Origin: a virus
DNA length: 21,644 nucleotides
Direction: 5' to 3' (one strand)
Virus record (IMG/VR): IMGVR_UViG_3300005527_000345
Location: 1 to 21,644 of that record
Below, piece after piece: positions 48 to 21,506 of the stretch. The notes beneath the pieces are model-generated. The model did not search any database. It saw only the letters and a program-made list of their open reading frames with translations, and was not told the DNA's origin. Position 1 is the first letter of the stretch. Every line of letters starts with the position of its first letter. The translations under genes were made by a program, and so were the position numbers.

Positions 48-596
48 ATGCCATTATTCACATCACAACGAGATGCCGGTTTTTTATTAGGCGTCAACAA
101 AGAGATAATGCATGGGTTCTCAAGTGTTGAGGTTGCTGTATATAAAATCGATATCGAACAAACCGATGTGAATATATACGAAGAATCTACAAGTAAAGCA
201 TATCGACCACCGGTTAGAATTTTTGCACAAATACGTTTCGACGAGAAAACTACTGCCGGTGATGAACTCACAGATTTTACACAAACATTAGGTGTAGGCT
301 TTCTTATAAACGATTTGAAAACTGCCCAGTTGTTTATCGAAGAAGGTGATATTATCGAGTACGATAGTGGATTTTATCAGGTAGATCAAATCAGTGAACC
401 GAAAGGGTGGGCAGGCCGACGACCGGATGCAATGATAGGAATCTCTGAAGATGGATGGAATTCACATGGTTACGATATATCAGTAGTTGCTGAATGTCAT
501 CTTACACGTACTAACAATCTTAATATTGTGGAAGTACGAAAGGGCATAGTTGAAACTGCAATCGGCACCGATACGAGTATACCGAATTTCTTATAA
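48..596 (+). CDS. Neck protein, T4 gp14-like
   Basis: A 182-residue protein with the pattern of the T4 gp14 neck family. It has an N-terminal segment naming a residue-rich turn before EIMHG, a central NIYEESTSKAYRPPV stretch (about residues 42-56), a GDIIEYDSGFYQV stretch (about 99-112), and a late CHLTRTNNLNI stretch (about 149-159). Neck proteins close the capsid portal after packaging and form the surface where the tail docks. Position supports the call: it lies directly upstream of gp15-like, sheath and tube genes, as in T4. An AAGGTAAGG purine run just before the ATG is a plausible ribosome site. The family call rests on remembered sequence pattern and synteny. Confidence 0.6.
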   Translation: MPLFTSQRDAGFLLGVNKEIMHGFSSVEVAVYKIDIEQTDVNIYEESTSKAYRPPVRIFAQIRFDEKTTAGDELTDFTQTLGVGFLINDLKTAQLFIEEGDIIEYDSGFYQVDQISEPKGWAGRRPDAMIGISEDGWNSHGYDISVVAECHLTRTNNLNIVEVRKGIVETAIGTDTSIPNFL

Positions 597-613: not shown

Positions 614-645
614 TTTGGCGTTCTGAGAATTAAGTTGTATATTTG
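614..645 (+). promoter_or_regulatory. Bacteroidota-type promoter before the metalloprotease gene
   Basis: TTTG at 614-617, 20 bases, then TATATTTG at 638-645. The bases after TTTG (GCGTTCTGAGAA) resemble the GAATTCTCA block of the other three copies. Transcription would start roughly 7 bases after the -7 element, leaving a leader of about 10 bases before the ATG at 663. Confidence 0.65.
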
Positions 646-662
646 TTTATAATTTATAGAGA

Positions 663-1268
663 ATGGCACGTTACGATTCGGTAATAAAACACTTAACACA
701 TAATGTAATGCGAAGTATTAAGCAGTCTGCTAAAAAAGGCAAAGTCTGTTTTGAATTTCCTAAAACAACAAGTGTTACAATCGACGACTGGGATTTGGAA
801 TTCGCACCGGAGATTACACTCAAATATCTCATAAAATACGATTCCGATTTTCCGTTAGATTTTGATATATACGGTCATGCTGATGACGAATCGATTGAAT
901 TTGCAATTATCGTAAATCCGTTAAAGGGTGAAACTATTTTTTCTGATATTGTACCGATACTAAAAGATGCACTACGTCATGAGATTGAGCATGTTGCTCA
1001 GAATCTTTTAGATCGACCTAAATCTGAAAGATACGAAAAAGTTGACGATTCTAATTTTTCTAAATATTTAACCGCAAGACATGAAATACCGGCCTATGTC
1101 CGTGGTCTATATAAACAGGCAAAAACAAGAAAACTGCCACTATCTAAAATGTTTGACTGGTATTTCGAAGATTATGCACATTTACTTTCAGATAAAGAAA
1201 TCAGTACAGTAAGAACCGCATGGACCGGATACGCTAAAAAACATCTACCTGCCGCACAATTTGTATAA
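663..1268 (+). CDS. Zinc metalloprotease-like protein in the neck gene cluster
   Basis: A 201-residue protein with a zincin signature HEIEH at residues 106-110 (H106 and H110 as metal ligands, E107 as catalytic base), inside a helix DALRHEIEHVAQNLL. A second conserved-looking segment, ARHEIPAYVRGLYKQAK (138-154), could supply the third ligand through E141, as in gluzincins. No signal peptide or membrane segment is visible, so it probably acts in the cytoplasm or in the particle. Substrate is unknown: candidates are head or neck proteins during maturation, or a host protein. It lies between neck and tail-terminator genes but carries its own TTTG/TATATTTG promoter, the class otherwise found before replication genes. 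Activity is inferred from the motif only. Confidence 0.65.
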   Translation: MARYDSVIKHLTHNVMRSIKQSAKKGKVCFEFPKTTSVTIDDWDLEFAPEITLKYLIKYDSDFPLDFDIYGHADDESIEFAIIVNPLKGETIFSDIVPILKDALRHEIEHVAQNLLDRPKSERYEKVDDSNFSKYLTARHEIPAYVRGLYKQAKTRKLPLSKMFDWYFEDYAHLLSDKEISTVRTAWTGYAKKHLPAAQFV

Positions 1269-1273
1269 TGCGA

Positions 1274-1281
1274 TATTTATA
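1274..1281 (+). promoter_or_regulatory. TAYTTATW box before the tail-terminator gene
   Basis: TATTTATA preceded by GA, 13 bases before the ATG at 1295. It is one of six similar boxes in gaps upstream of structural genes. It may be a late-promoter core, but it is short and AT-rich. Confidence 0.35.
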
Positions 1282-2201: not shown

Positions 2202-2209
2202 TATTTATA
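2202..2209 (+). promoter_or_regulatory. TAYTTATW box before the sheath gene
   Basis: TATTTATA, 42 bases before the sheath ATG, inside an 87-base gap. The same gap also holds TTTGG at 2184-2188 and TATATTTTG around 2216, an imperfect relative of the other promoter class. A promoter for the sheath is very likely somewhere here; which element matters cannot be told by eye. Confidence 0.4.
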
Positions 2210-4104: not shown

Positions 4105-4133
4105 AGGGCGGCCTTAAAAAGCCGTCCTCTTTT
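4105..4133 (+). terminator. Factor-independent terminator after the sheath gene
   Basis: An 8-pair stem, AGGGCGGC at 4105-4112 with GCCGTCCT at 4121-4128 (one G-T pair), an 8-base loop CTTAAAAA, then CTTTT. It lies 9 bases after the sheath stop codon. Confidence 0.85.
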
Positions 4134-4134
4134 A

Positions 4135-4142
4135 TATTTATA
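4135..4142 (+). promoter_or_regulatory. TAYTTATW box before the tube gene
   Basis: TATTTATA directly after the sheath terminator and 20 bases before the tube ATG. Because the terminator would cut off read-through, a promoter is expected here, which makes this one of the better-supported copies of the box. Confidence 0.45.
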
Positions 4143-9300: not shown

Positions 9301-11051
9301 ATAAAACCCCAGTCGATGCTGTAACCGAAACGATAACAGACACAACAACTAATATACCGGCGCCGAATACCGGAGGTGTAACCGAATCGGTAAATAATAC
9401 ACGGAGTGCTTTTCAAAGATTAGGCGATGCGATGAAGAGTATCGGTGAAGGTATAAAAAAAGTATTGGAATTTATTGTAGATTTCATAACACAATCATTA
9501 CAGAAAATAGTCACTGCCGTATCTAATTCCTTGACAACACTTTCAAGTGCTATCGGCAATTCTTTAAGTTCGATATCTTCTGGTATACAGTCGGCAATCA
9601 CATCGATATCTTCTGGTATACAATCTGCACTGACATCGATATCTTCTGGTATACAATCTGCACTGACATCGATATCTTCTGGTATACAATCTGCACTGAC
9701 ATCGATATCGTCTGGTGTTGCATCTGCAATAAATTCACTATCATCTGCGATCGGTAACGCTCTTGGTTCAATCGGACAAGGTGTCGGTATATTTTTACAA
9801 TCGATACTCACTGGTATAGGTAAAGGATTGGCATCATTTAGTGCAAACGCGTTACTCGGTGCTGCTACACTTGTAGTCGTTGCCGGTGCATTATGGGTTG
9901 CTGCAGATGCTTTCGAAAAATTCGCATCGGTTAGTTGGGAAGATTTAGGAAAAGGATTTATTGCTTTAGGTTTATTAGCGGCAGCTGCTATCGGATTAGG
10001 ATTTGCTTTACCGTTTATCGTTCCGGGCGCAATTGCTATAGCATTATTAGGCGCATCGTTAATACCGTTAGCATTTGCCTTAAATTTAGCAGGACCAGCA
10101 CTGGAAACGTTTGGCAATATCATATCAAAAGTATTCGATGGTTTAGCACTGATAATAAGCACGGTTACAAACTCAATATCTGTACTATTCGATAAATTCA
10201 CATCATTAGAACCGGCTAAGTTATTCGGTGCAGCAGCAGGTATAGGTGCAATTAGTGCAGCATTAGTAGCGTTTGGTGGTGGATCGGCAATTGCTGGTGC
10301 CGGTGCAGCATTCGGTGAATTTTTTGGTGGTGACCCTATTGAAAAATTTACACAACTCGGTGAATTGGGTCCTAAATTGCAAGTGACCGCTGCATCGATC
10401 AATATGTTGACTGAAGCAATGCAAAAGTTTTCAGGAATAGACGGACAAGCTATCGGACTCGCAGCCGACGGTATTATGCGTTTAGGCAAAGCATTTGCAA
10501 CACTCGGCGCCGGTTCGGCAATTGAAGGTATCGGTTCTGCAATCGGTGAATTCATCGGAGGGGATCCACTTGATAAACTTGAACGTCTTTCAGCAATGTC
10601 TAACCCGTTACAGATCGTTGCGAACGCGATTGAAAAAATAGCACAGTCATTGAATTCGCTTTCCGCATCATTAGGTGATGTCGATCTATCAAAACTCGCA
10701 GAATTAGGAACGGCGATCGCAGGTACTATCGATACAAATATAAATGATATGGGAGGTGCAACCGCTGGTGCAACGATTAGTGAATCGCCGATATTGCAGT
10801 CAATAAATAATCCGGTAGAACAAGGATTCGCTGCACAACAAGCAATCGCTACAGATGGAGTCACGGCAACAACACCTTCAACACAGGTACAGGTTACAGC
10901 ACCGGCAGCACAAATTGCACCTACAAACAACGTGAAAGATATACAAAGTGCTTTATTGGCAATAGCAAATAGGCCGATAATTGTTAAGATCGGAGATATG
11001 GAACTGCGAACATTGAATAAACAGTTTCGTGGTATGAACAACAATATCTAA
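6363..11051 (+). CDS. Tape measure protein
   Basis: At 1562 residues this is by far the longest gene and sits after tube and assembly genes, as tape measures do. It sets tail length and helps DNA enter the cell. The first 400 residues are charged and likely coiled coil. Hydrophobic stretches lie at about 442-462 and at about 1163-1240. Repeats: three 18-residue units (924-977, GGEDGSKSL-DRIKGIFT type), five 11-residue units of TSISSGIQSAL type from 1070, and a 77-residue imperfect duplication from about 1304 (GSAI..G..FGEF-GGDP). The start is TTG at 6363, chosen because GGAGG at 6352-6356 is six bases upstream. If mostly extended helix at about 0.15 nm per residue, the tail would be near 230 nm, about twice T4; hydrophobic domains may shorten that. 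Confidence 0.93.
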   Translation: MANPNDPKNLLKSAKIQKDIAKAASNTEDAQRAVLAVVDAINKGLISSETQLAKVLSSLKGADFKSLKALNKNFADSGDKLNDWVSYLTKIEKLSKNQLDIELEISDLNEETRKFLRDHLKNTDKLLDTTEKIRDVEEEISEQQEIKLDFSERLSKAFSGINQQQRQQLELALSTNQTYSDISANLANSFDILNSFSIPNIFADLIGNTAQDVKDTFGTVLNNLSAESFELFGETLNFTDAHSRLETFSSEVENKLTESFSTAMQQSASEFGVSVDTMTAYIDQLRSDLEGNSVQILSPDQISEIDSALQNMGDEARAAFQIATRSGIVFQGEMQGINAELAVYLQRMARVAESRSSFQISARAVDELTRSVERQIYDVMPMWMSNILGIEDAFTTIRTSATTALNKYAENISNGATQTEALGGLIKDFGGSLSATLTPAMRLGLIFGGIVIAAMALWKLMTGLEDSAKQYSEMLGVSRQQGAEIYKQTLEITTASNNRLATEKDIQEILAAHVERNGTILDLSKQSNQEMIKFAASLGKTYGISSAEAAGLISQFKGMGASMEQSQGLSLWLAQASELAGISFKEVTKDLADSTQEIALYYRGMPKDAARAVIQIKKMGMSMKSVGKVMDKALDIGTFYQDMTELSIMTGGTANLQKFFDLRFSGAKPDELAGEIADQFDRMVDSGEANEFNMRKFAEATGMEVDELMKGRKIRKELNGLSAEQQKLLLRHMDSLSDADLANSASALAAHERLDTQERMNVAMDKMKGVLMKALLPLAESLSEAFAAGIPFLNVIGDVLKLIGGILSYTIIPAFQMILWPLQQIGSLLQEAYDYTAKLFGAADDTESAMGGIGEQTKTILKYITGGISALFLVSGQFSKAFTWPFQMVKGLIPGVKGGVFDIFKGGISGAKGFGEKLVSVFKGGEDGSKSLADRIKGIFTGGDEGAKSLTQRLKDFFKGGEDGSKSLTDRIKGIFTGGDKTPVDAVTETITDTTTNIPAPNTGGVTESVNNTRSAFQRLGDAMKSIGEGIKKVLEFIVDFITQSLQKIVTAVSNSLTTLSSAIGNSLSSISSGIQSAITSISSGIQSALTSISSGIQSALTSISSGIQSALTSISSGVASAINSLSSAIGNALGSIGQGVGIFLQSILTGIGKGLASFSANALLGAATLVVVAGALWVAADAFEKFASVSWEDLGKGFIALGLLAAAAIGLGFALPFIVPGAIAIALLGASLIPLAFALNLAGPALETFGNIISKVFDGLALIISTVTNSISVLFDKFTSLEPAKLFGAAAGIGAISAALVAFGGGSAIAGAGAAFGEFFGGDPIEKFTQLGELGPKLQVTAASINMLTEAMQKFSGIDGQAIGLAADGIMRLGKAFATLGAGSAIEGIGSAIGEFIGGDPLDKLERLSAMSNPLQIVANAIEKIAQSLNSLSASLGDVDLSKLAELGTAIAGTIDTNINDMGGATAGATISESPILQSINNPVEQGFAAQQAIATDGVTATTPSTQVQVTAPAAQIAPTNNVKDIQSALLAIANRPIIVKIGDMELRTLNKQFRGMNNNI
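9132..9293 (+). repeat. Three 54-base repeats inside the tape measure gene
   Basis: Units at 9132-9185, 9186-9239 and 9240-9293 each encode 18 residues starting GGE or GGD. Units 1 and 3 are nearly identical in DNA; unit 2 is diverged (GGDEGAKSLTQRLKDFFK), so units 1-2 form a 108-base higher-order period. The two copies of TTTAAAGGTGG start at 9126 and 9234. Confidence 0.88.
9570..9734 (+). repeat. Tandem 33-base repeats inside the tape measure gene
   Basis: Five in-frame 33-base units beginning TCGATATC at 9570, 9603, 9636, 9669 and 9702. Units 2, 3 and 4 are identical; unit 1 differs at a few bases and unit 5 is diverged in its second half. Each encodes TSISSGIQSAL-like 11 residues. No spacers separate the copies, so this is not a CRISPR array. 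Confidence 0.93.
10272..10733 (+). repeat. 77-residue duplication in the tape measure C-terminal region
   Basis: Copy A starts at 10272 (FGGGSAIAGAGAAFGEFFGGDP) read as FGGGSAIAG then FGEFFGGDP; copy B starts at 10503 (LGAGSAIEG then IGEFIGGDP). Both continue with a helix ending near a NMLTEAMQKF / IEKIAQSLNSL segment. The DNA has diverged, so this is an older duplication than the 33-base units. Confidence 0.7.
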
Positions 11052-14087: not shown

Positions 14088-14663
14088 ATGCCATTAAGTC
14101 CTTACATAGAACCGTATTACCCACTAAGTAAAATTAGAACTGGACTCTACACGAAAGGTGGCGAGTTCGTACCGTATTTTCGTACATCGGATGAATACGT
14201 TGGATTGTATCACGAATTGCCAAATGGTGATTATTGGACCGAAAGTATACCAACTGAAGGCAAGTCGATACGTATTGTGCCTAAAAGATTCGAAGCGTCT
14301 GCTGATGTGATACGATATAATCAGATACGACAACGACCCGAAAATCAGTATATAAGTCCGATTCAAAAGTTTCCGTATATTGGTGATGACGATCGACAAA
14401 CGGGCTTCATATTTAGATTCTTTGTACAGAAAAGAAATTCGCCAGAGAATACGATAATCGAAGTCGATGGCGAACAATACAAAACAATAAACGGTCAAAA
14501 CTATCCTGGTATAAGCAATCTTGTATGGAATAACTGTACAATACAGTGGCAAATTGCAGGTGACTATGCAGAACAGTTGAATCGAAATGCAGTGATGAAA
14601 GCCGAAATTAATTTCCCTGGTATACAAAAATATTTAGCAAATTATTTGGAATTTTGGAAATAA
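14088..14663 (+). CDS. Putative virion protein of unknown role
   Basis: A 191-residue protein. The N-terminal half has a compact pattern of KIRTGLYTKGGEFV, then YVGLYHELPNGDYWTESIP and GKSIRIVPKRF (residues about 15-67). This Gly/Tyr-rich hairpin arrangement is familiar from structural-gene clusters of marine T4-type phages, where such proteins are annotated only as hypothetical or virion proteins. The rest (IQWQIAGDYAEQLNRNAV and FPGIQKYLANYLEFWK) is mixed. It starts one base after the hub-like gene stop, so it belongs to that unit. Its last codons contain the TTTGG element of the next operon's promoter. Confidence 0.6.
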   Translation: MPLSPYIEPYYPLSKIRTGLYTKGGEFVPYFRTSDEYVGLYHELPNGDYWTESIPTEGKSIRIVPKRFEASADVIRYNQIRQRPENQYISPIQKFPYIGDDDRQTGFIFRFFVQKRNSPENTIIEVDGEQYKTINGQNYPGISNLVWNNCTIQWQIAGDYAEQLNRNAVMKAEINFPGIQKYLANYLEFWK

Positions 14664-14676
14664 AGTCGTATATTTG
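14645..14676 (+). promoter_or_regulatory. Bacteroidota-type promoter of the polymerase operon
   Basis: TTTG at 14645-14648, 20 bases, then TATATTTG at 14669-14676. The block after TTTG reads GAATTTTGGAAA, a variant of GAATTCTCA. The first element lies in the last codons of the preceding gene. Predicted start of transcription is about 13 bases before the TTG at 14696. Confidence 0.7.
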
Positions 14677-14695: not shown

Positions 14696-16009
14696 TTGAA
14701 ATACATACAAACATATACAGATGTCAATTGGTCTGACATGCTCAACGATATGCTTATCGTTGTACCGGTATTATCTGACCATACGCGACACCGTTGTGAA
14801 AATCGTATCAGTTTCGTGTATTTCTATAATTACAGCACCGGTGACGAATTTGTAATCGGATGTAGTCACAGTGATCTTGTAAAAAACGGCGAAAATTGGT
14901 TAACAGAGATCAGTTTACCGGAATCGACAATCTGCTATAAAAAATCGATATTATGGTCAAAGGGCATTAAATGTTATGATGCAGATCTTTGTTATTGGTT
15001 ACAAGAAAATACACCGATCGAAATCGAATATTCACAAGATATAACTGCATATCATAGATGGTATTCAGATCTCCGAAATGTAAACGACATTATACCGATA
15101 GTTAATCTAATCGAATATTGTCGGACTATACGAAGTAATTTCGAACAGTGCATTTTTCGAATCGAATTCGATGACACTTTGAATTTCTATAACGAAAACG
15201 TAATCGAAAACTTTTACCGAATCGAAAACTCAGGTTTACCGATAAATTCCGATAAACTGAAACAATTCTATAATATCAATAAAAGTCGACTCTATACCGA
15301 ATACTATCCGTATACTGCAACAGGCAGGCCAAGTAACCGTTTCGGTGGTATAAATTTCGCTGCATTAGATAAAGGCACTGGTGTACGTTCGATTATCGAA
15401 GTTGAAAACAATTCACAGATGCTAATCGAATTCGATTACGATAGTCATCATGTACGTCTTGTTGCGAAACTTATCGGTTACGAATTACCTGCTGGTAACT
15501 TGCACGAATATTTCGGCAGACAATATTTTAAAACACCGGTAATAACAGATGAACAATACGCCGAGTCGAAAACAATAACGTTCAGAATGTTGTACGGTAC
15601 TATATACAATGAATACAGTGATATTCCATTTTTTAAAATGGTGCAAGAGTACCGTAATCGTTTATGGTCCGAGTTCGACGATATCGGTTATATAAAAACG
15701 CCGTTGACTAAACGTAAAATCTATGCGAAAAATCATGAGAATATGAACGCAAGTAAACTGTTCAACTATGTATTGCAGGGCTATGAAACAGATGTGAATT
15801 CGTTAATGTTAAACAAAATTCTCAGATATTTATATGAAAAGTATAGTAAAATTGTACTATATACATACGATTCTTTCTTATTTTTGTATGATAAACGCGA
15901 CGGTAAAAATTTTATAGATGATATTTTAATGATTCTGAATAATTACGGAATGCGTGCAAGTTTAAAGGTAGGAATAGGATACGATAATATGATAAAACCT
16001 AAAAGGTAG
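14696..16009 (+). CDS. Family A DNA polymerase, core only with a degenerate exonuclease-like N-terminus
   Basis: A 437-residue protein with Pol I core motifs in order: TATGRPSNRFGGINFAAL (207-224); motif A EFDYDSHHVRLVAKLIG, D247 as metal ligand; O-helix KTITFRMLYG (K292, F296, Y300 matching Pol I K758, F762, Y766); LQGYETDVNSLM; motif C YTYDSFLF, D392 as second ligand. Oddities: the Pol I steric-gate Glu of SQIE is His (H252), the Arg four before the O-helix Lys is Tyr, and HDE is YDS. Residues 1-150 resemble a decayed 3'-5' exonuclease (CYDADLCYWL) without its acidic residues. Much shorter than Pol I (928) or T7 polymerase (704). TTG start at 14696 suits the promoter spacing; ATG at 14735-14740 region is an alternative. 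First gene of its operon. Confidence 0.82.
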   Translation: MKYIQTYTDVNWSDMLNDMLIVVPVLSDHTRHRCENRISFVYFYNYSTGDEFVIGCSHSDLVKNGENWLTEISLPESTICYKKSILWSKGIKCYDADLCYWLQENTPIEIEYSQDITAYHRWYSDLRNVNDIIPIVNLIEYCRTIRSNFEQCIFRIEFDDTLNFYNENVIENFYRIENSGLPINSDKLKQFYNINKSRLYTEYYPYTATGRPSNRFGGINFAALDKGTGVRSIIEVENNSQMLIEFDYDSHHVRLVAKLIGYELPAGNLHEYFGRQYFKTPVITDEQYAESKTITFRMLYGTIYNEYSDIPFFKMVQEYRNRLWSEFDDIGYIKTPLTKRKIYAKNHENMNASKLFNYVLQGYETDVNSLMLNKILRYLYEKYSKIVLYTYDSFLFLYDKRDGKNFIDDILMILNNYGMRASLKVGIGYDNMIKPKR

Positions 16010-16012
16010 TTA

Positions 16013-17119
16013 ATGAAAACGATAACATATAAAGATTTGATAAATAAATGGTTTGCACAATTAGATAAAGGTTATGCAAATCCACCATATACGAAAGAGG
16101 AATGGGATATATTAGAATCGTTAAAACGAGAATATACAATCATAACAGAAGCAGAACCTGAAACACCAGAAAAACCGGAAAAAGAAAAATCTACTGAAGA
16201 TGACCGATTCGTAGCGAAGACTGCATTGTTTATGGATTCACCAGAAGCATTCACAGAATATATAATAACCAATTATACAAATGGTGTGCAGATACCGGGC
16301 TTAGAACTTGTATTTCAAGATCTTTCAAAACTGACACCTGAAAAATTTCAAGATGTAGCTAAAATAATAAATTCTGGTACAAACCGAAATCCTGATGACG
16401 GTTCATTCGGTATGGGTGAAAACGAGCAGACTCTGATGCGTCTACTCATTAAACATGTACAAATGCAAACTGGTGACCCAACCGAGTTATTTTTAGCAAT
16501 AGTCTTAGGTGGTAGAATCAAAGCCGGCACATCAGAAACCGGTGATAGTATTACGAGCAACGTCGATATCGATGGTACACGTGGTATTATAGTTAAAGAC
16601 TTTGCTTTGATACCGGAATTGGATTTCGGTAAGTTGTCACCTGAAGCGATTGAGGCATTGGAAGACGTTTTCGAAATGGCGAATGTAGTGTTAGACCAAC
16701 AACAAAAACCAGAACTGCAACGTGATTCTTTGAACGACATATTTCGACTAATGTCAGATCCTGAAATTATTGCAGAAATCAACGAATTACTGAAACTCTA
16801 TCAAACTACCGAAATAAAAGTTGTACAACGTTTAGGAAAAAAGGTAGCGAACATATTAGGTGATAAATCGCCTGAACAATTAGTTATCACTTTTTTCAAT
16901 TTGTTCGACGAATACTTACGAACAAAAATAACTCAGACCGGCTATTGGTCGACCGTCGACTCGGAAAAGTTCACGGTGTATTTAGAACCCTCATCTGATA
17001 TTTATAGTATACTCAAATCCGATATCGAAAACCGCAGAATTTCAAGAGCGATATCGAATTTAGAATCGTATTTTGTTAAGGTGAAGGGTGAATCAATAAA
17101 CAAAAAATTGTTGGCATAA
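16013..17119 (+). CDS. Paralog of the downstream nuclease-like protein, apparently degenerate
   Basis: A 368-residue protein I cannot name. Residues 11-35 (KWFAQLDKGYANPPYTKEEW) match the start of the next gene product closely, followed by a Glu/Pro/Lys-rich linker (46-62). Around 158-195 it can be aligned with the PD-(D/E)xK region of its neighbour: E158, then VDIDG with D185 and D187, then GIIVKDF with K195. In place of the catalytic Glu of E-x-K stands I193, so nuclease activity looks lost, although D and K remain. The rest is helical. It starts three bases after the polymerase stop with AAAAGG upstream and ends one base before the next gene, so the three are one unit. A non-catalytic partner of the next protein is a reasonable guess. 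Confidence 0.72.
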   Translation: MKTITYKDLINKWFAQLDKGYANPPYTKEEWDILESLKREYTIITEAEPETPEKPEKEKSTEDDRFVAKTALFMDSPEAFTEYIITNYTNGVQIPGLELVFQDLSKLTPEKFQDVAKIINSGTNRNPDDGSFGMGENEQTLMRLLIKHVQMQTGDPTELFLAIVLGGRIKAGTSETGDSITSNVDIDGTRGIIVKDFALIPELDFGKLSPEAIEALEDVFEMANVVLDQQQKPELQRDSLNDIFRLMSDPEIIAEINELLKLYQTTEIKVVQRLGKKVANILGDKSPEQLVITFFNLFDEYLRTKITQTGYWSTVDSEKFTVYLEPSSDIYSILKSDIENRRISRAISNLESYFVKVKGESINKKLLA

Positions 17120-17120
17120 T

Positions 17121-18086
17121 ATGAATTTTGAAAAAGCAGTAGTAGAATGGTTTGCGAATTTAGAAAAAGGATACGCAATACCACCGTACACCAAAGAAGA
17201 AATCCGTGTACTCGAACGTATTGTCAAATCACAAGCAACTGTACTAAATGAGAATGCAGAATGGGATAAACTTATAGCGGATAAGTTTCCAAATGGTGTG
17301 CCTGATCCAGTTGGTACGTATAAAATACCACAAGGAAAAACTGGCCCTATTAGTATTGCACCGGGTGATAAAAAGGTCTATGAAACATTGTTTAAAGTAA
17401 AACCTGGTGCAGGTGTGGGTAACGGCGAACTTGCGTTGTATTGGTTATTCAGCAAAAGTACAACTGTCGAAAGCACAGGAAAAGGTGCAGCTGCCGATCT
17501 ACGTATAGGTGGCCTTAATTGCGAAGTTAAATCGTATAAAAAGCATGACGGTAAAATAAAACTTGGGAAATTCAAAGAATTACGTAACTCAAGACAGATC
17601 ATTTCACGTGTATTTGGTATTCTAAATCTTACAAAGGCGTTTGACCGAAATTCCGATTCGAGTTTCTTTACCGAAACTAAATTTACAGTAGAGGATTTAC
17701 GTCAAGGATTTGAAAGTCTACTTGACCTAAATGCGAACGTTTTCAATAATGCAGATTTACAACCTTTTCTATCAAGAGTTACTGCATTTAAACAAATGAA
17801 GGCGGAAATCGATTGGGTACTGAAAACGTTTGAAGGTAAAGATAACGATCAGGATTTAGCGAAAGCGTGTATGGCGAAGGTGGTTTCTGAAAAATTGGAC
17901 TTGAAACCAGGTTTCGGAGGTTATATGATTAATTGTTTAAAGGAAAAACCTACAGATATTAAATCGTTCTATATACCAACAAACGCAGAAGCGATTCTTA
18001 GAGATACCGATTTCGATACCCTAAATAAAAATACAGCGGTGAATTCCGGTGAAATTGAATTGAATTATAATGAACTATTCGGATAA
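17121..18086 (+). CDS. PD-(D/E)xK nuclease-like protein
   Basis: A 321-residue protein. The signature lies at 102-137: GELALYWLF (E103), AADLRIGG (D126), then NCEVKSYKK (E135, K137). Spacing of about 23 residues from E to D and nine from D to E-x-K is normal for PD-(D/E)xK enzymes, which cut DNA with metal ions. Residues 9-33 (EWFANLEKGYAIPPYTKEEI) repeat the start of the upstream paralog. The end, NYNELFG, is almost the same as the end of the SSB (FDEMFG). It may be a recombination, repair or host-DNA nuclease acting with the polymerase operon; cleavage specificity cannot be read. The fold call is from motif only, without structure prediction. Confidence 0.62.
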   Translation: MNFEKAVVEWFANLEKGYAIPPYTKEEIRVLERIVKSQATVLNENAEWDKLIADKFPNGVPDPVGTYKIPQGKTGPISIAPGDKKVYETLFKVKPGAGVGNGELALYWLFSKSTTVESTGKGAAADLRIGGLNCEVKSYKKHDGKIKLGKFKELRNSRQIISRVFGILNLTKAFDRNSDSSFFTETKFTVEDLRQGFESLLDLNANVFNNADLQPFLSRVTAFKQMKAEIDWVLKTFEGKDNDQDLAKACMAKVVSEKLDLKPGFGGYMINCLKEKPTDIKSFYIPTNAEAILRDTDFDTLNKNTAVNSGEIELNYNELFG

Positions 18087-19318: not shown

Positions 19319-19350
19319 TTTGGAATTCTCAGAAAAATCACTTATATTTG
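19319..19350 (+). promoter_or_regulatory. Bacteroidota-type promoter of the SSB-UvsX operon
   Basis: TTTG at 19319-19322, 20 bases, then TATATTTG at 19343-19350, with the full GAATTCTCA block after TTTG. The leader to the ATG at 19386 is about 29 bases, longer than in the other copies and very AT-rich. Confidence 0.78.
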
Positions 19351-19385: not shown

Positions 19386-20216
19386 ATGGACTTAAACAAA
19401 ATTAGAGAGAGGCTTGAATCTCTCACAAATCAAAACAAGCCGTCGGCATCAAAACAAATTTGGAAGCCGCAACCTGGTTCACAGGTAATTCGTATTGTAC
19501 CATATGTACATAACAAAGATTGGCCTTTTTTGGAACTACTGTTTTACTACGATTTGGCTAAGAAAACTATCATTTCGCCGCAAAATTTCAATCAACCTGA
19601 CCCAGTTCAGGAATTGGCTGACAAACTGAAAGGCACTGGTGAACGTGAGGATTGGTTGTTAGCACGGAAGATCGAACCGAAGATGCGTACTTATGTACCT
19701 ATTTTGGTTAGAGGTCAGGAACACGAGGGTGTAAAATTTTGGGGTTTCGGTAAAACTGTATACGAGGAACTTCTGAAGACGATCGATGACCCTGATTATG
19801 GTAACATCACAGATCTGAAGAACGGTACCGATATTACAGTCGAATACGAAAAAGCAGCAGACGGATCTTATCCGAAAACAAGTTTCCGTGTTAAGAGAAA
19901 CACGTCACCTGCAACAACAGATCCTGAAGTGATTAAACTTCTAAAAGAAATGCCTACGGTCAAAGACATATGGGAACCTCCTACATATGAAGAACTGGCG
20001 GATCTATTAGACAAGTTTATCAACAACACAGCTGAAGAGGATGCTGCACCTGCTACGGATGATGATGAAGACTTGCCGACAAGTGATTTCTTAGCAGATC
20101 CACTCAATCCTTTGAATGGGCCGATTCGTGTAAATGTACCGTCAGCCAAAAAGTCAGCACCAGCAGCTGCTGTGACTAACGATATTGATGCTGCATTCGA
20201 TGAAATGTTCGGATAA
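19386..20216 (+). CDS. 32: Single-stranded DNA-binding protein, T4 gp32-like
   Basis: A 276-residue gp32-type SSB (T4 gp32 is 301). It coats single strands and organises replication and recombination proteins. The N-terminus (KIRERLESLTNQNK) is a basic cooperativity-type segment. The core has WKPQPGSQVIRIVPY (26-40), WPFLELLFYY (46-55), then KMRTYVPILVRG (99-110) and VKFWGFGKTVYEELL (116-130). The acidic tail from about 215 ends in DIDAAFDEMFG. Odd: the zinc site of gp32 seems lost. SPQNFNQPDPVQE (64-76) occupies the place of a C-P...C-P-x-C pattern, with S64, D72 and Q75 at the Cys positions, and the whole protein has no cysteine. It is followed 11 bases later by the UvsX gene. Confidence 0.87.
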   Translation: MDLNKIRERLESLTNQNKPSASKQIWKPQPGSQVIRIVPYVHNKDWPFLELLFYYDLAKKTIISPQNFNQPDPVQELADKLKGTGEREDWLLARKIEPKMRTYVPILVRGQEHEGVKFWGFGKTVYEELLKTIDDPDYGNITDLKNGTDITVEYEKAADGSYPKTSFRVKRNTSPATTDPEVIKLLKEMPTVKDIWEPPTYEELADLLDKFINNTAEEDAAPATDDDEDLPTSDFLADPLNPLNGPIRVNVPSAKKSAPAAAVTNDIDAAFDEMFG

Positions 20217-21474: not shown

Positions 21475-21506
21475 TTTGGAATTCTCACAAAAGATTATTA
21501 CATTTG
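21475..21506 (+). promoter_or_regulatory. Bacteroidota-type promoter before the last, truncated gene
   Basis: TTTG at 21475-21478, 20 bases, then TACATTTG at 21499-21506, with the GAATTCTCA block after TTTG. The leader to the ATG at 21531 is about 18 bases. Confidence 0.75.

What the first reader, a model, noticed from the sequence alone, without database searches (positions are those of the whole stretch)
614..1268. A metalloprotease gene among neck genes carries the replication-class promoter
The HEIEH protein is surrounded by late structural genes, yet it is the only one in the first 14 kb with an intact TTTG/TATATTTG promoter. That suggests it is made earlier than the virion proteins around it, so it may cleave a host protein or act before assembly instead of being a virion part. 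Read-through into the gp15-like gene would also follow.
Basis: inference. Interest (0 to 1): 0.52.

Follow-up and report, generated by a model that had tools for sequence, protein, structure and literature searches.

The report
Phage protease swapped leader for promoter
A bacterial virus carries a predicted zinc protease among its neck genes; related viruses appear to pack this protein inside their heads, but this one has lost the packing signal and instead has a promoter like those of its DNA-replication genes, so it is probably made fresh inside the infected cell.

Summary
The site at 614-645 (TTTG-N20-TATATTTG) belongs to a four-member promoter set (614, 14645, 19319, 21475); a matrix from 33 sites of other phages finds exactly these four in the window (24.9-33.2 bits, next -0.7). 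The other three precede a DNA polymerase, an SSB and the gene after UvsX. Neighbouring structural genes carry a different motif, TATTTATA, which I identify as the clade's late promoter. The ORF 663-1268 is a predicted zincin: HEIEH and E141 are invariant in 51 aligned members. It matches no Pfam or PHROG family.

The window copy begins M-ARYD, where the mature protein would start; the leader is gone and a promoter stands in its place. Same-position relatives still have leaders and no promoter of their own. Best reading: an effector once packed in the head and injected is now made after infection, probably to cut a host protein. Timing, cleavage, packaging and substrate are inferred; nothing was measured.

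The parts
614..645 (+). Promoter of the replication class: -33 box TTTG (614-617), -7 box TATATTTG (638-645), spacer 20
   Evidence: also in L003 and L004
657..659 (+). In-frame TAG that closes the frame directly upstream of the ATG at 663, so no leader peptide is possible
   Evidence: sequence
663..1268 (+). Predicted zincin-type metallopeptidase, 201 aa, starting M-ARYD (the position of the mature N-terminus in relatives)
978..992 (+). HEIEH motif, residues 106-110
   Evidence: invariant in 51 of 51 rows of A3; one family member kept out of A3, L064, has HEIEY
1083..1085 (+). E141, candidate third zinc ligand, first residue of the helix 141-156
   Evidence: invariant in A3; model
1274..1281 (+). 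TATTTATA late-type element of the gp15-like gene (ends 14 nt before the ATG at 1295)
48..596 (+). gp14-like neck gene (label by position; no family match)
2202..2209 (+). TATTTATA before the tail sheath gene
4135..4142 (+). TATTTATA before the tail tube gene
14645..14676 (+). Same promoter class, before the DNA polymerase A-like gene at 14696
19319..19350 (+). Same promoter class, before the SSB gene at 19386
21475..21506 (+). Same promoter class, downstream of the UvsX gene
4105..4128 (+). Intrinsic-terminator-like hairpin after the sheath gene; where a transcript from 614 could end

Best explanation
The gene encodes a small zincin-type metallopeptidase that acts in the infected cell. Its relatives are mostly delivered with the virion: a leader, or an upstream module of a fused protein, carries them into the prohead, the prohead protease cuts after (L/I/M/V)-x-E before GRYD, and the freed peptidase is injected with the DNA. 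In this phage the leader is missing, the protein starts at the residue corresponding to the cut end, and the space between the neck genes holds a promoter of the class used by the DNA polymerase and SSB genes. The protein is therefore made in the cell at about the time of replication, before the surrounding neck and tail proteins, and probably cleaves a host (perhaps defence) protein. Shown by computation: promoter class, late motif of the neighbours, conserved HEIEH+E, conserved junction, absence of the leader, leader-bearing genes in the same place in relatives. Inferred: timing, cleavage at the junction, packaging of relatives, peptidase activity, substrate.
For: Promoter class. The same long motif in viral contigs: 67 stretches, 70 sites, of which 16 lie directly before SSB homologues and 3 at DNA polymerase homologues (for 2 of these 3 the extrapolated start falls inside the site). 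Late motif: in the relative immuto, 24 of 30 + strand TATTTATA lie within 45 nt before a + strand CDS start, 2.0 expected. In 188 kb of structural DNA of 21 sheath-relative loci no site of the promoter class scores above 13.1. Junction: 52 distinct junctions besides the window's; P1 is Glu in 51, P1' is Gly in 52, P3 is L/I/M/V in 51 (L/I in 40). Search bias: 75 of 84 loci carry only the HExxH-side search pattern, 5 both, 0 only the GRYD-side one. Such sites also stand in immuto head proteins: MCP IVSE|A after residue 59, and LLTE|S and SLNE|G in the prohead protease itself. Same place, gp14-like/gp15-like: L162 and L165 have MPRNSSKLKNLLLE|GRYD; L159 and L160 have MQLIEQLIIK|GRYD; none has its own promoter of the class. 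Of 61 distinct family ORFs with an intact 5' end, the window's included, only the window's has a credible site upstream; L061 has a match with a spacer of 22 in upstream coding DNA; two, L012 and L016, have TATTTATA. In the immuto fused protein both [LIVM]xE|G sites that flank the HEMIH module (after residues 496 and 702) lie in or beside poorly predicted linkers. Structure model pLDDT 79.8, pTM 0.72, helix - four strands - HEIEH helix - Glu helix.
Against: No expression, proteomic or activity data exist for this phage. Read-through from late promoters upstream would also express the gene late. The junction could be conserved for folding or by descent. L159/L160 have Lys at P1, so a leader can stay without a cleavable site. 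Peptidase activity is not shown; L064 has HEIEY, so some copies may be inactive. The gene tree does not make the three same-place copies one clade (one change in 8% of 200 bootstrap trees; long branches), so replacement by a leaderless gene is possible. No PDB fold match at E <= 0.001.
Confidence: 0.55

Rival explanations
1. The protein is still a virion or assembly protein, made from both promoters: it processes head or neck proteins during assembly, and the extra promoter only raises its level.
For: It lies between neck genes, the following one with a late-type element; no credible terminator stops late read-through. Zincins have been proposed to act in virion maturation in jumbo phages (PMC7824862, passages). 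One weak structural match is named 'Structural protein' of Serratia phage BF (E 6e-3).
Against: Close relatives lack the gene: in L157 (sheath 80% identical) gp14-like is followed directly by gp15-like, so it is not needed for the neck. The class of its promoter is that of replication genes.
Confidence: 0.2
2. The promoter-like site is not functional, or serves late as well; the gene is an ordinary late accessory gene that lost its leader by chance.
For: Timing of the class is unknown; the 614 site differs from the consensus at the two positions after TTTGG (CG for AA).
Against: 27.2 bits against a best of 17.1 in 60 simulations; both boxes and the spacing are the same in three contigs. No usable TATTTATA stands before 663: the nearest near-match, AATTTATA, ends 3 nt before the ATG (sequence).
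Confidence: 0.15
3. The conserved E|GRYD is part of the fold or a natural start of the domain and not a protease site; relatives are plain fused enzymes that are not packed.
For: The motif could be kept by descent; no cleavage product has been seen.
Against: The window copy lacks the Glu and the leader but keeps RYD; leaders are otherwise unlike each other; the same site form occurs in MCP, scaffold and prohead protease of immuto; [LIVM]xEG is enriched in 51 fused proteins (114 seen; shuffled mean 46, maximum 63 of 200; reversed motif 47), though these proteins are related to each other and not independent.
Confidence: 0.15

Closest known systems
Zincin-like metallopeptidases (MPTases) of phage polyvalent proteins (Iyer et al. 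2017, PMC5512222; passages read)
   Same: HExxH helix followed by a helix with a Glu; modules of large fused proteins thought to enter the host with the DNA; proposed to cut themselves free or to attack host proteins
   Different: No convincing Pfam match for this family; here the modules are bounded by prohead-protease-like sites; the window copy stands alone, without leader, with a replication-class promoter
T4 internal head proteins and Alt with capsid targeting sequences (PMC9026906; passages and section 2.5 read)
   Same: Relatives have N-terminal leaders ending in a site of the L/I-X-E type and so resemble packed cargo
   Different: The window protein has no leader; P3 may also be Met or Val; packaging is inferred only
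T4 Alt versus ModA/ModB (recalled, no call)
   Same: One activity delivered by two routes: packed in the virion, or made early in the cell
   Different: There the two forms are in one phage; here the two forms are seen in different phages, and the activity would be a peptidase
SprT-like and ArdC-like MPTases of jumbo phages (PMC7824862, passages)
   Same: Patchy accessory zincins proposed to cleave host proteins
   Different: No sequence link found; different operon setting

Membership tests
Zincin-like metallopeptidase | HExxH in a helix | tested here: met
   HEIEH in 51 of 51 rows, on helix 86-117. L064, with HEIEY, was left out of the alignment
Zincin-like metallopeptidase | Glu ligand in the following helix | tested here: met
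   E141 invariant, helix 141-156
Zincin-like metallopeptidase | N-terminal helix and beta sheet before the HExxH helix | tested here: met
   H5-24, E34-39, E50-59, E67-73, E77-84, H86-117; core as described in PMC5512222
Zincin-like metallopeptidase | Fold match to a solved zincin | tested here: inconclusive
   No Foldseek match with E <= 0.001; VIA Z at most 5.5, zincins such as PepN at Z 4.1 over 126 residues among the rows; in BFVD 6 matches with E <= 0.001, and weaker rows include IrrE, M48, SprT and polyvalent proteins
Zincin-like metallopeptidase | Zinc binding and peptidase activity | not testable with these tools
   Needs protein
Head-packed cargo with capsid-targeting leader | N-terminal leader ending in a prohead-protease site, in the window protein | tested here: not met
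   Stop codon at 657-659, start M-ARYD
Head-packed cargo with capsid-targeting leader | The same in relatives | tested here: met
   51 of 52 distinct junctions have Glu at P1, 52 Gly at P1'; P3 L/I in 40, L/I/M/V in 51
Head-packed cargo with capsid-targeting leader | Cut product present in virions | not testable with these tools
   No proteomics found
Bacteroidetes-type (-33 TTTG / -7 TAnnTTTG) promoter | Both boxes with a spacer of about 19-21 | tested here: met
   Spacer 20; consensus recalled, only a search listing seen
T4-type late promoter | Late-type -10 element usable by the gene at 663 (T4 TATAAATA, recalled) | tested here: not met
   Clade element is TATTTATA; none usable before 663

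The most novel reading that the evidence does not exclude
Phages of this group switch an effector between two delivery routes by exchanging a head-targeting leader for a replication-class promoter. In the ancestral route, large fused cargo proteins (nucleotidyltransferase, NMN adenylyltransferase, two zinc proteases, zinc ribbons) are packed whole and cut by the prohead protease into separate enzymes that are injected together, a viral-polyprotein strategy in a tailed phage.
Probability: 0.4. Interest if true: 0.75.

Novelty: new variant of a known kind. Interest (0 to 1): 0.57.

Why it matters
Head-packed, injected phage effectors are known, and so are early-made ones, but sequence evidence of one family moving from one route to the other, visible as loss of a leader and gain of a promoter at one spot, would let delivery mode be read from genomes. 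The junction motif offers a simple way to find injected cargo in phages of Bacteroidetes, where little is known. A culturable relative (immuto) makes the cleavage prediction directly testable by virion mass spectrometry.

Tried and rejected
Family searches of the protein alone and of 51 members found nothing convincing: Pfam and PHROGs (best hit phrog_10499 at 1.1e-4, one of 51 members, no function); sequence search of solved structures, 0 matches; plasmids, no match; near-identity phage DNA, no match. The fold searches also list unrelated rows (PRC2, myoglobin, anthrax lethal factor with TM about 0.12); I do not use them. The bacterial genome collection gave two relatives, in a Burkholderiaceae MAG and a Winogradskyella MAG, not followed.

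A search for the 614-type promoter in immuto with the strict pattern found none on the + strand; its SSB and early-type genes seem to use another sequence. So the class is not shared by all relatives. Seven further records of sheath relatives had no match with up to 2 mismatches, although four of the seven hold an SSB gene; in the L159 phage the SSB promoter is a variant ending TATATTAT. The idea that 18105 is a fifth promoter was dropped on score, not disproved. The idea that every neck-slot copy of the protease has the promoter was rejected. Literature: searches 'prohead protease + capsid targeting sequence + phage', 'phage + polyprotein + prohead protease + metalloprotease' (none), 'phage + capsid targeting + internal head protein + metallopeptidase', 'polyprotein + bacteriophage + prohead protease + ejected' and 'late promoter + T4-like + Bacteroidetes + phage' showed in their listings no account of this family or of a leader-for-promoter exchange. 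The 'immuto' search gave four papers that I did not open. The Baltic Flavobacterium phage paper PMC7077304 does not mention immuto (passages). In PMC5694885 I saw passages only.

Full report
What is there. The window is a 21.6 kb fragment of a viral record, a T4-like phage with sheath, tube, baseplate, DNA polymerase A, SSB and UvsX genes (SSB and UvsX named from the immuto gene order and from homology among loci). The nearest named genome is Flavobacterium phage immuto (sheath 43.5% identical), whose genome has the same order around its ends. The host of the window phage is not known; Bacteroidetes is inferred from immuto and from the promoter type.

The promoter. The site at 614-645 has both boxes intact with a spacer of 20. 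Its membership in a set was tested out of sample: a matrix from the three other good sites scores it 27.2 bits, against 11.7 for the next non-training site in the window and at most 17.1 in 60 first-order Markov simulations. A second matrix, from 33 distinct sites in other viral contigs (contigs of the window's own phage left out: L094, L104, L108, L127), finds four sites in the window and nothing else above 0. Those training sites were chosen by an exact long pattern, so the matrix is narrow; the 614 site differs from it by CG for AA. Of the 70 sites found with that pattern, 16 lie directly before SSB homologues and 3 at polymerase homologues; 51 have no window homologue directly downstream, though many of these lie in the same cluster before a 113-aa gene near the SSB gene. 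Three loci (L092, L096, L129) have a site near tail genes, pointing the other way. So the class is mainly, not only, one of replication genes.

The neighbours. TATTTATA is the late-type element of this clade: in immuto 24 of 30 + strand copies lie within 45 nt before a + strand CDS start, 2.0 expected, most of them 11-26 nt away, among them copies before terminase, portal, sheath, tube and tape measure genes. Three of the 24 lie only 2-5 nt away and may be chance. In the window it stands before the gp15-like gene (1274), sheath (2202) and tube (4135), with near-matches before 4976, 6111 and 11082; two copies, 15827 and 16999, are inside genes. Nothing usable stands before 663.

The protein. 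HEIEH and E141 are invariant in 51 aligned members (51 chosen from 63 non-identical domains). The AlphaFold model (pLDDT 79.8, pTM 0.72) has the zincin order of elements, with E141 at the start of a helix that follows the HEIEH helix. Solved-structure matches are weak; in the viral library the best match is an unnamed phage protein (E 2.2e-10), and among the weaker rows are several metallopeptidases.

The leader. Of 84 family loci examined, the 80 kept by the search plus four neck-slot copies, every one outside the window's own phage has residues before the GRYD-like start of the domain. Among 52 distinct junctions P1 is Glu in 51 and P1' is Gly in 52; P3 is L or I in 40, M or V in 11, T in 1. 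T4 gp21 cuts after L/I-X-E (PMC9026906, section 2.5). The same form stands at a comparable place in the immuto capsid protein (after residue 59; T4 gp23 loses 65 residues) and in the immuto prohead protease. The leaders are short and otherwise unlike each other, such as MKYIKMFESFTLNE, MKIIISEQQLKQLITE and MKSLKRIIIE, or the domain is part of proteins of about 524-1616 aa. In immuto gp088 the sites after 496 and 702 lie in or beside weakly predicted linkers. The window copy has none of this: its frame reads TAG, AGA, ATG, GCA, CGT, TAC, GAT.

The neck slot. In relatives with sheath proteins 67-81% identical to the window's, the gene lies between the gp14-like and gp15-like genes in L159, L160, L162, L164 (cut at its start) and L165; in L157, L163, L166, L170, L175 and L176 both flanking genes are there and the protease is not; in L169 the two genes are next to each other elsewhere in the locus; others are too short or arranged differently. 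The same-place copies carry leaders. Other leader-bearing genes stand in this region: a zeta-toxin/AAA kinase in L165 (Pfam Zeta_toxin E 8.8e-10) and small proteins in L159, L166 and L176. In the sister phage of L159 (28.4 kb, collinear with the window) the pattern TTTGG-N19-TA[TC]ATT occurs three times on the + strand (mean 0.055 in 200 simulations): before SSB, before a gene at 25945, and at 96 in the neck, before a 175-aa gene with no such leader. So a replication-class promoter in front of a leaderless accessory gene in the neck region has been seen twice, with different genes. That site could also read through to the protease there.

Reading. Two independent features of the window copy, lost leader and gained promoter, point the same way: the protein is made in the cell, before the late proteins, and acts there. 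The family background makes a host target the most likely role, as proposed for zincins in polyvalent proteins (PMC5512222) and in jumbo phages (PMC7824862). None of timing, cleavage or activity was measured. The gene tree neither proves nor excludes one origin of the neck-slot copies, so replacement by a leaderless gene is a real alternative to leader loss.

Noticed in passing
window 16013-17119 and 17121-18086: Two neighbouring genes share an N-terminal stretch (WFAxLxKGYAxPPYTKEE) that is followed by IITE|A or VLNE|N; possibly two more head-targeted cargo proteins of this phage. The sister phage has a relative.
   Followed up: partly
L023 3895-6615 (immuto gp088) and relatives: Large fused proteins combine an NMN adenylyltransferase-like part, a HEMIH protein and the HEIEH domain, in some relatives also zinc-ribbon-like stretches, joined at prohead-protease-like sites: a possible injected polyprotein.
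   Followed up: partly
L165 1962-2681: Zeta-toxin/AAA kinase with the leader MKLKQLLQFESILE|G between gp13-like and gp14-like genes.
   Followed up: partly
L159 96-127 and 158-685: Replication-class promoter variant before a leaderless 175-aa gene of unknown family in the neck region of the sister phage.
   Followed up: yes
immuto genome (L002, L007-L009): TATTTATA is the likely late promoter element of these phages; T4 uses TATAAATA (recalled).
   Followed up: yes
L163, L167-L170, L172, L175-L177: These sheath relatives show two or three tail-tube-like matches in a row where the window has one.
   Followed up: no
L064: Family member with HEIEY instead of HEIEH, perhaps an inactive copy.
   Followed up: no
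window 9413-11044, - strand: A 543-aa open frame antisense to the tape measure gene; most likely a by-product of its codon use.
   Followed up: no
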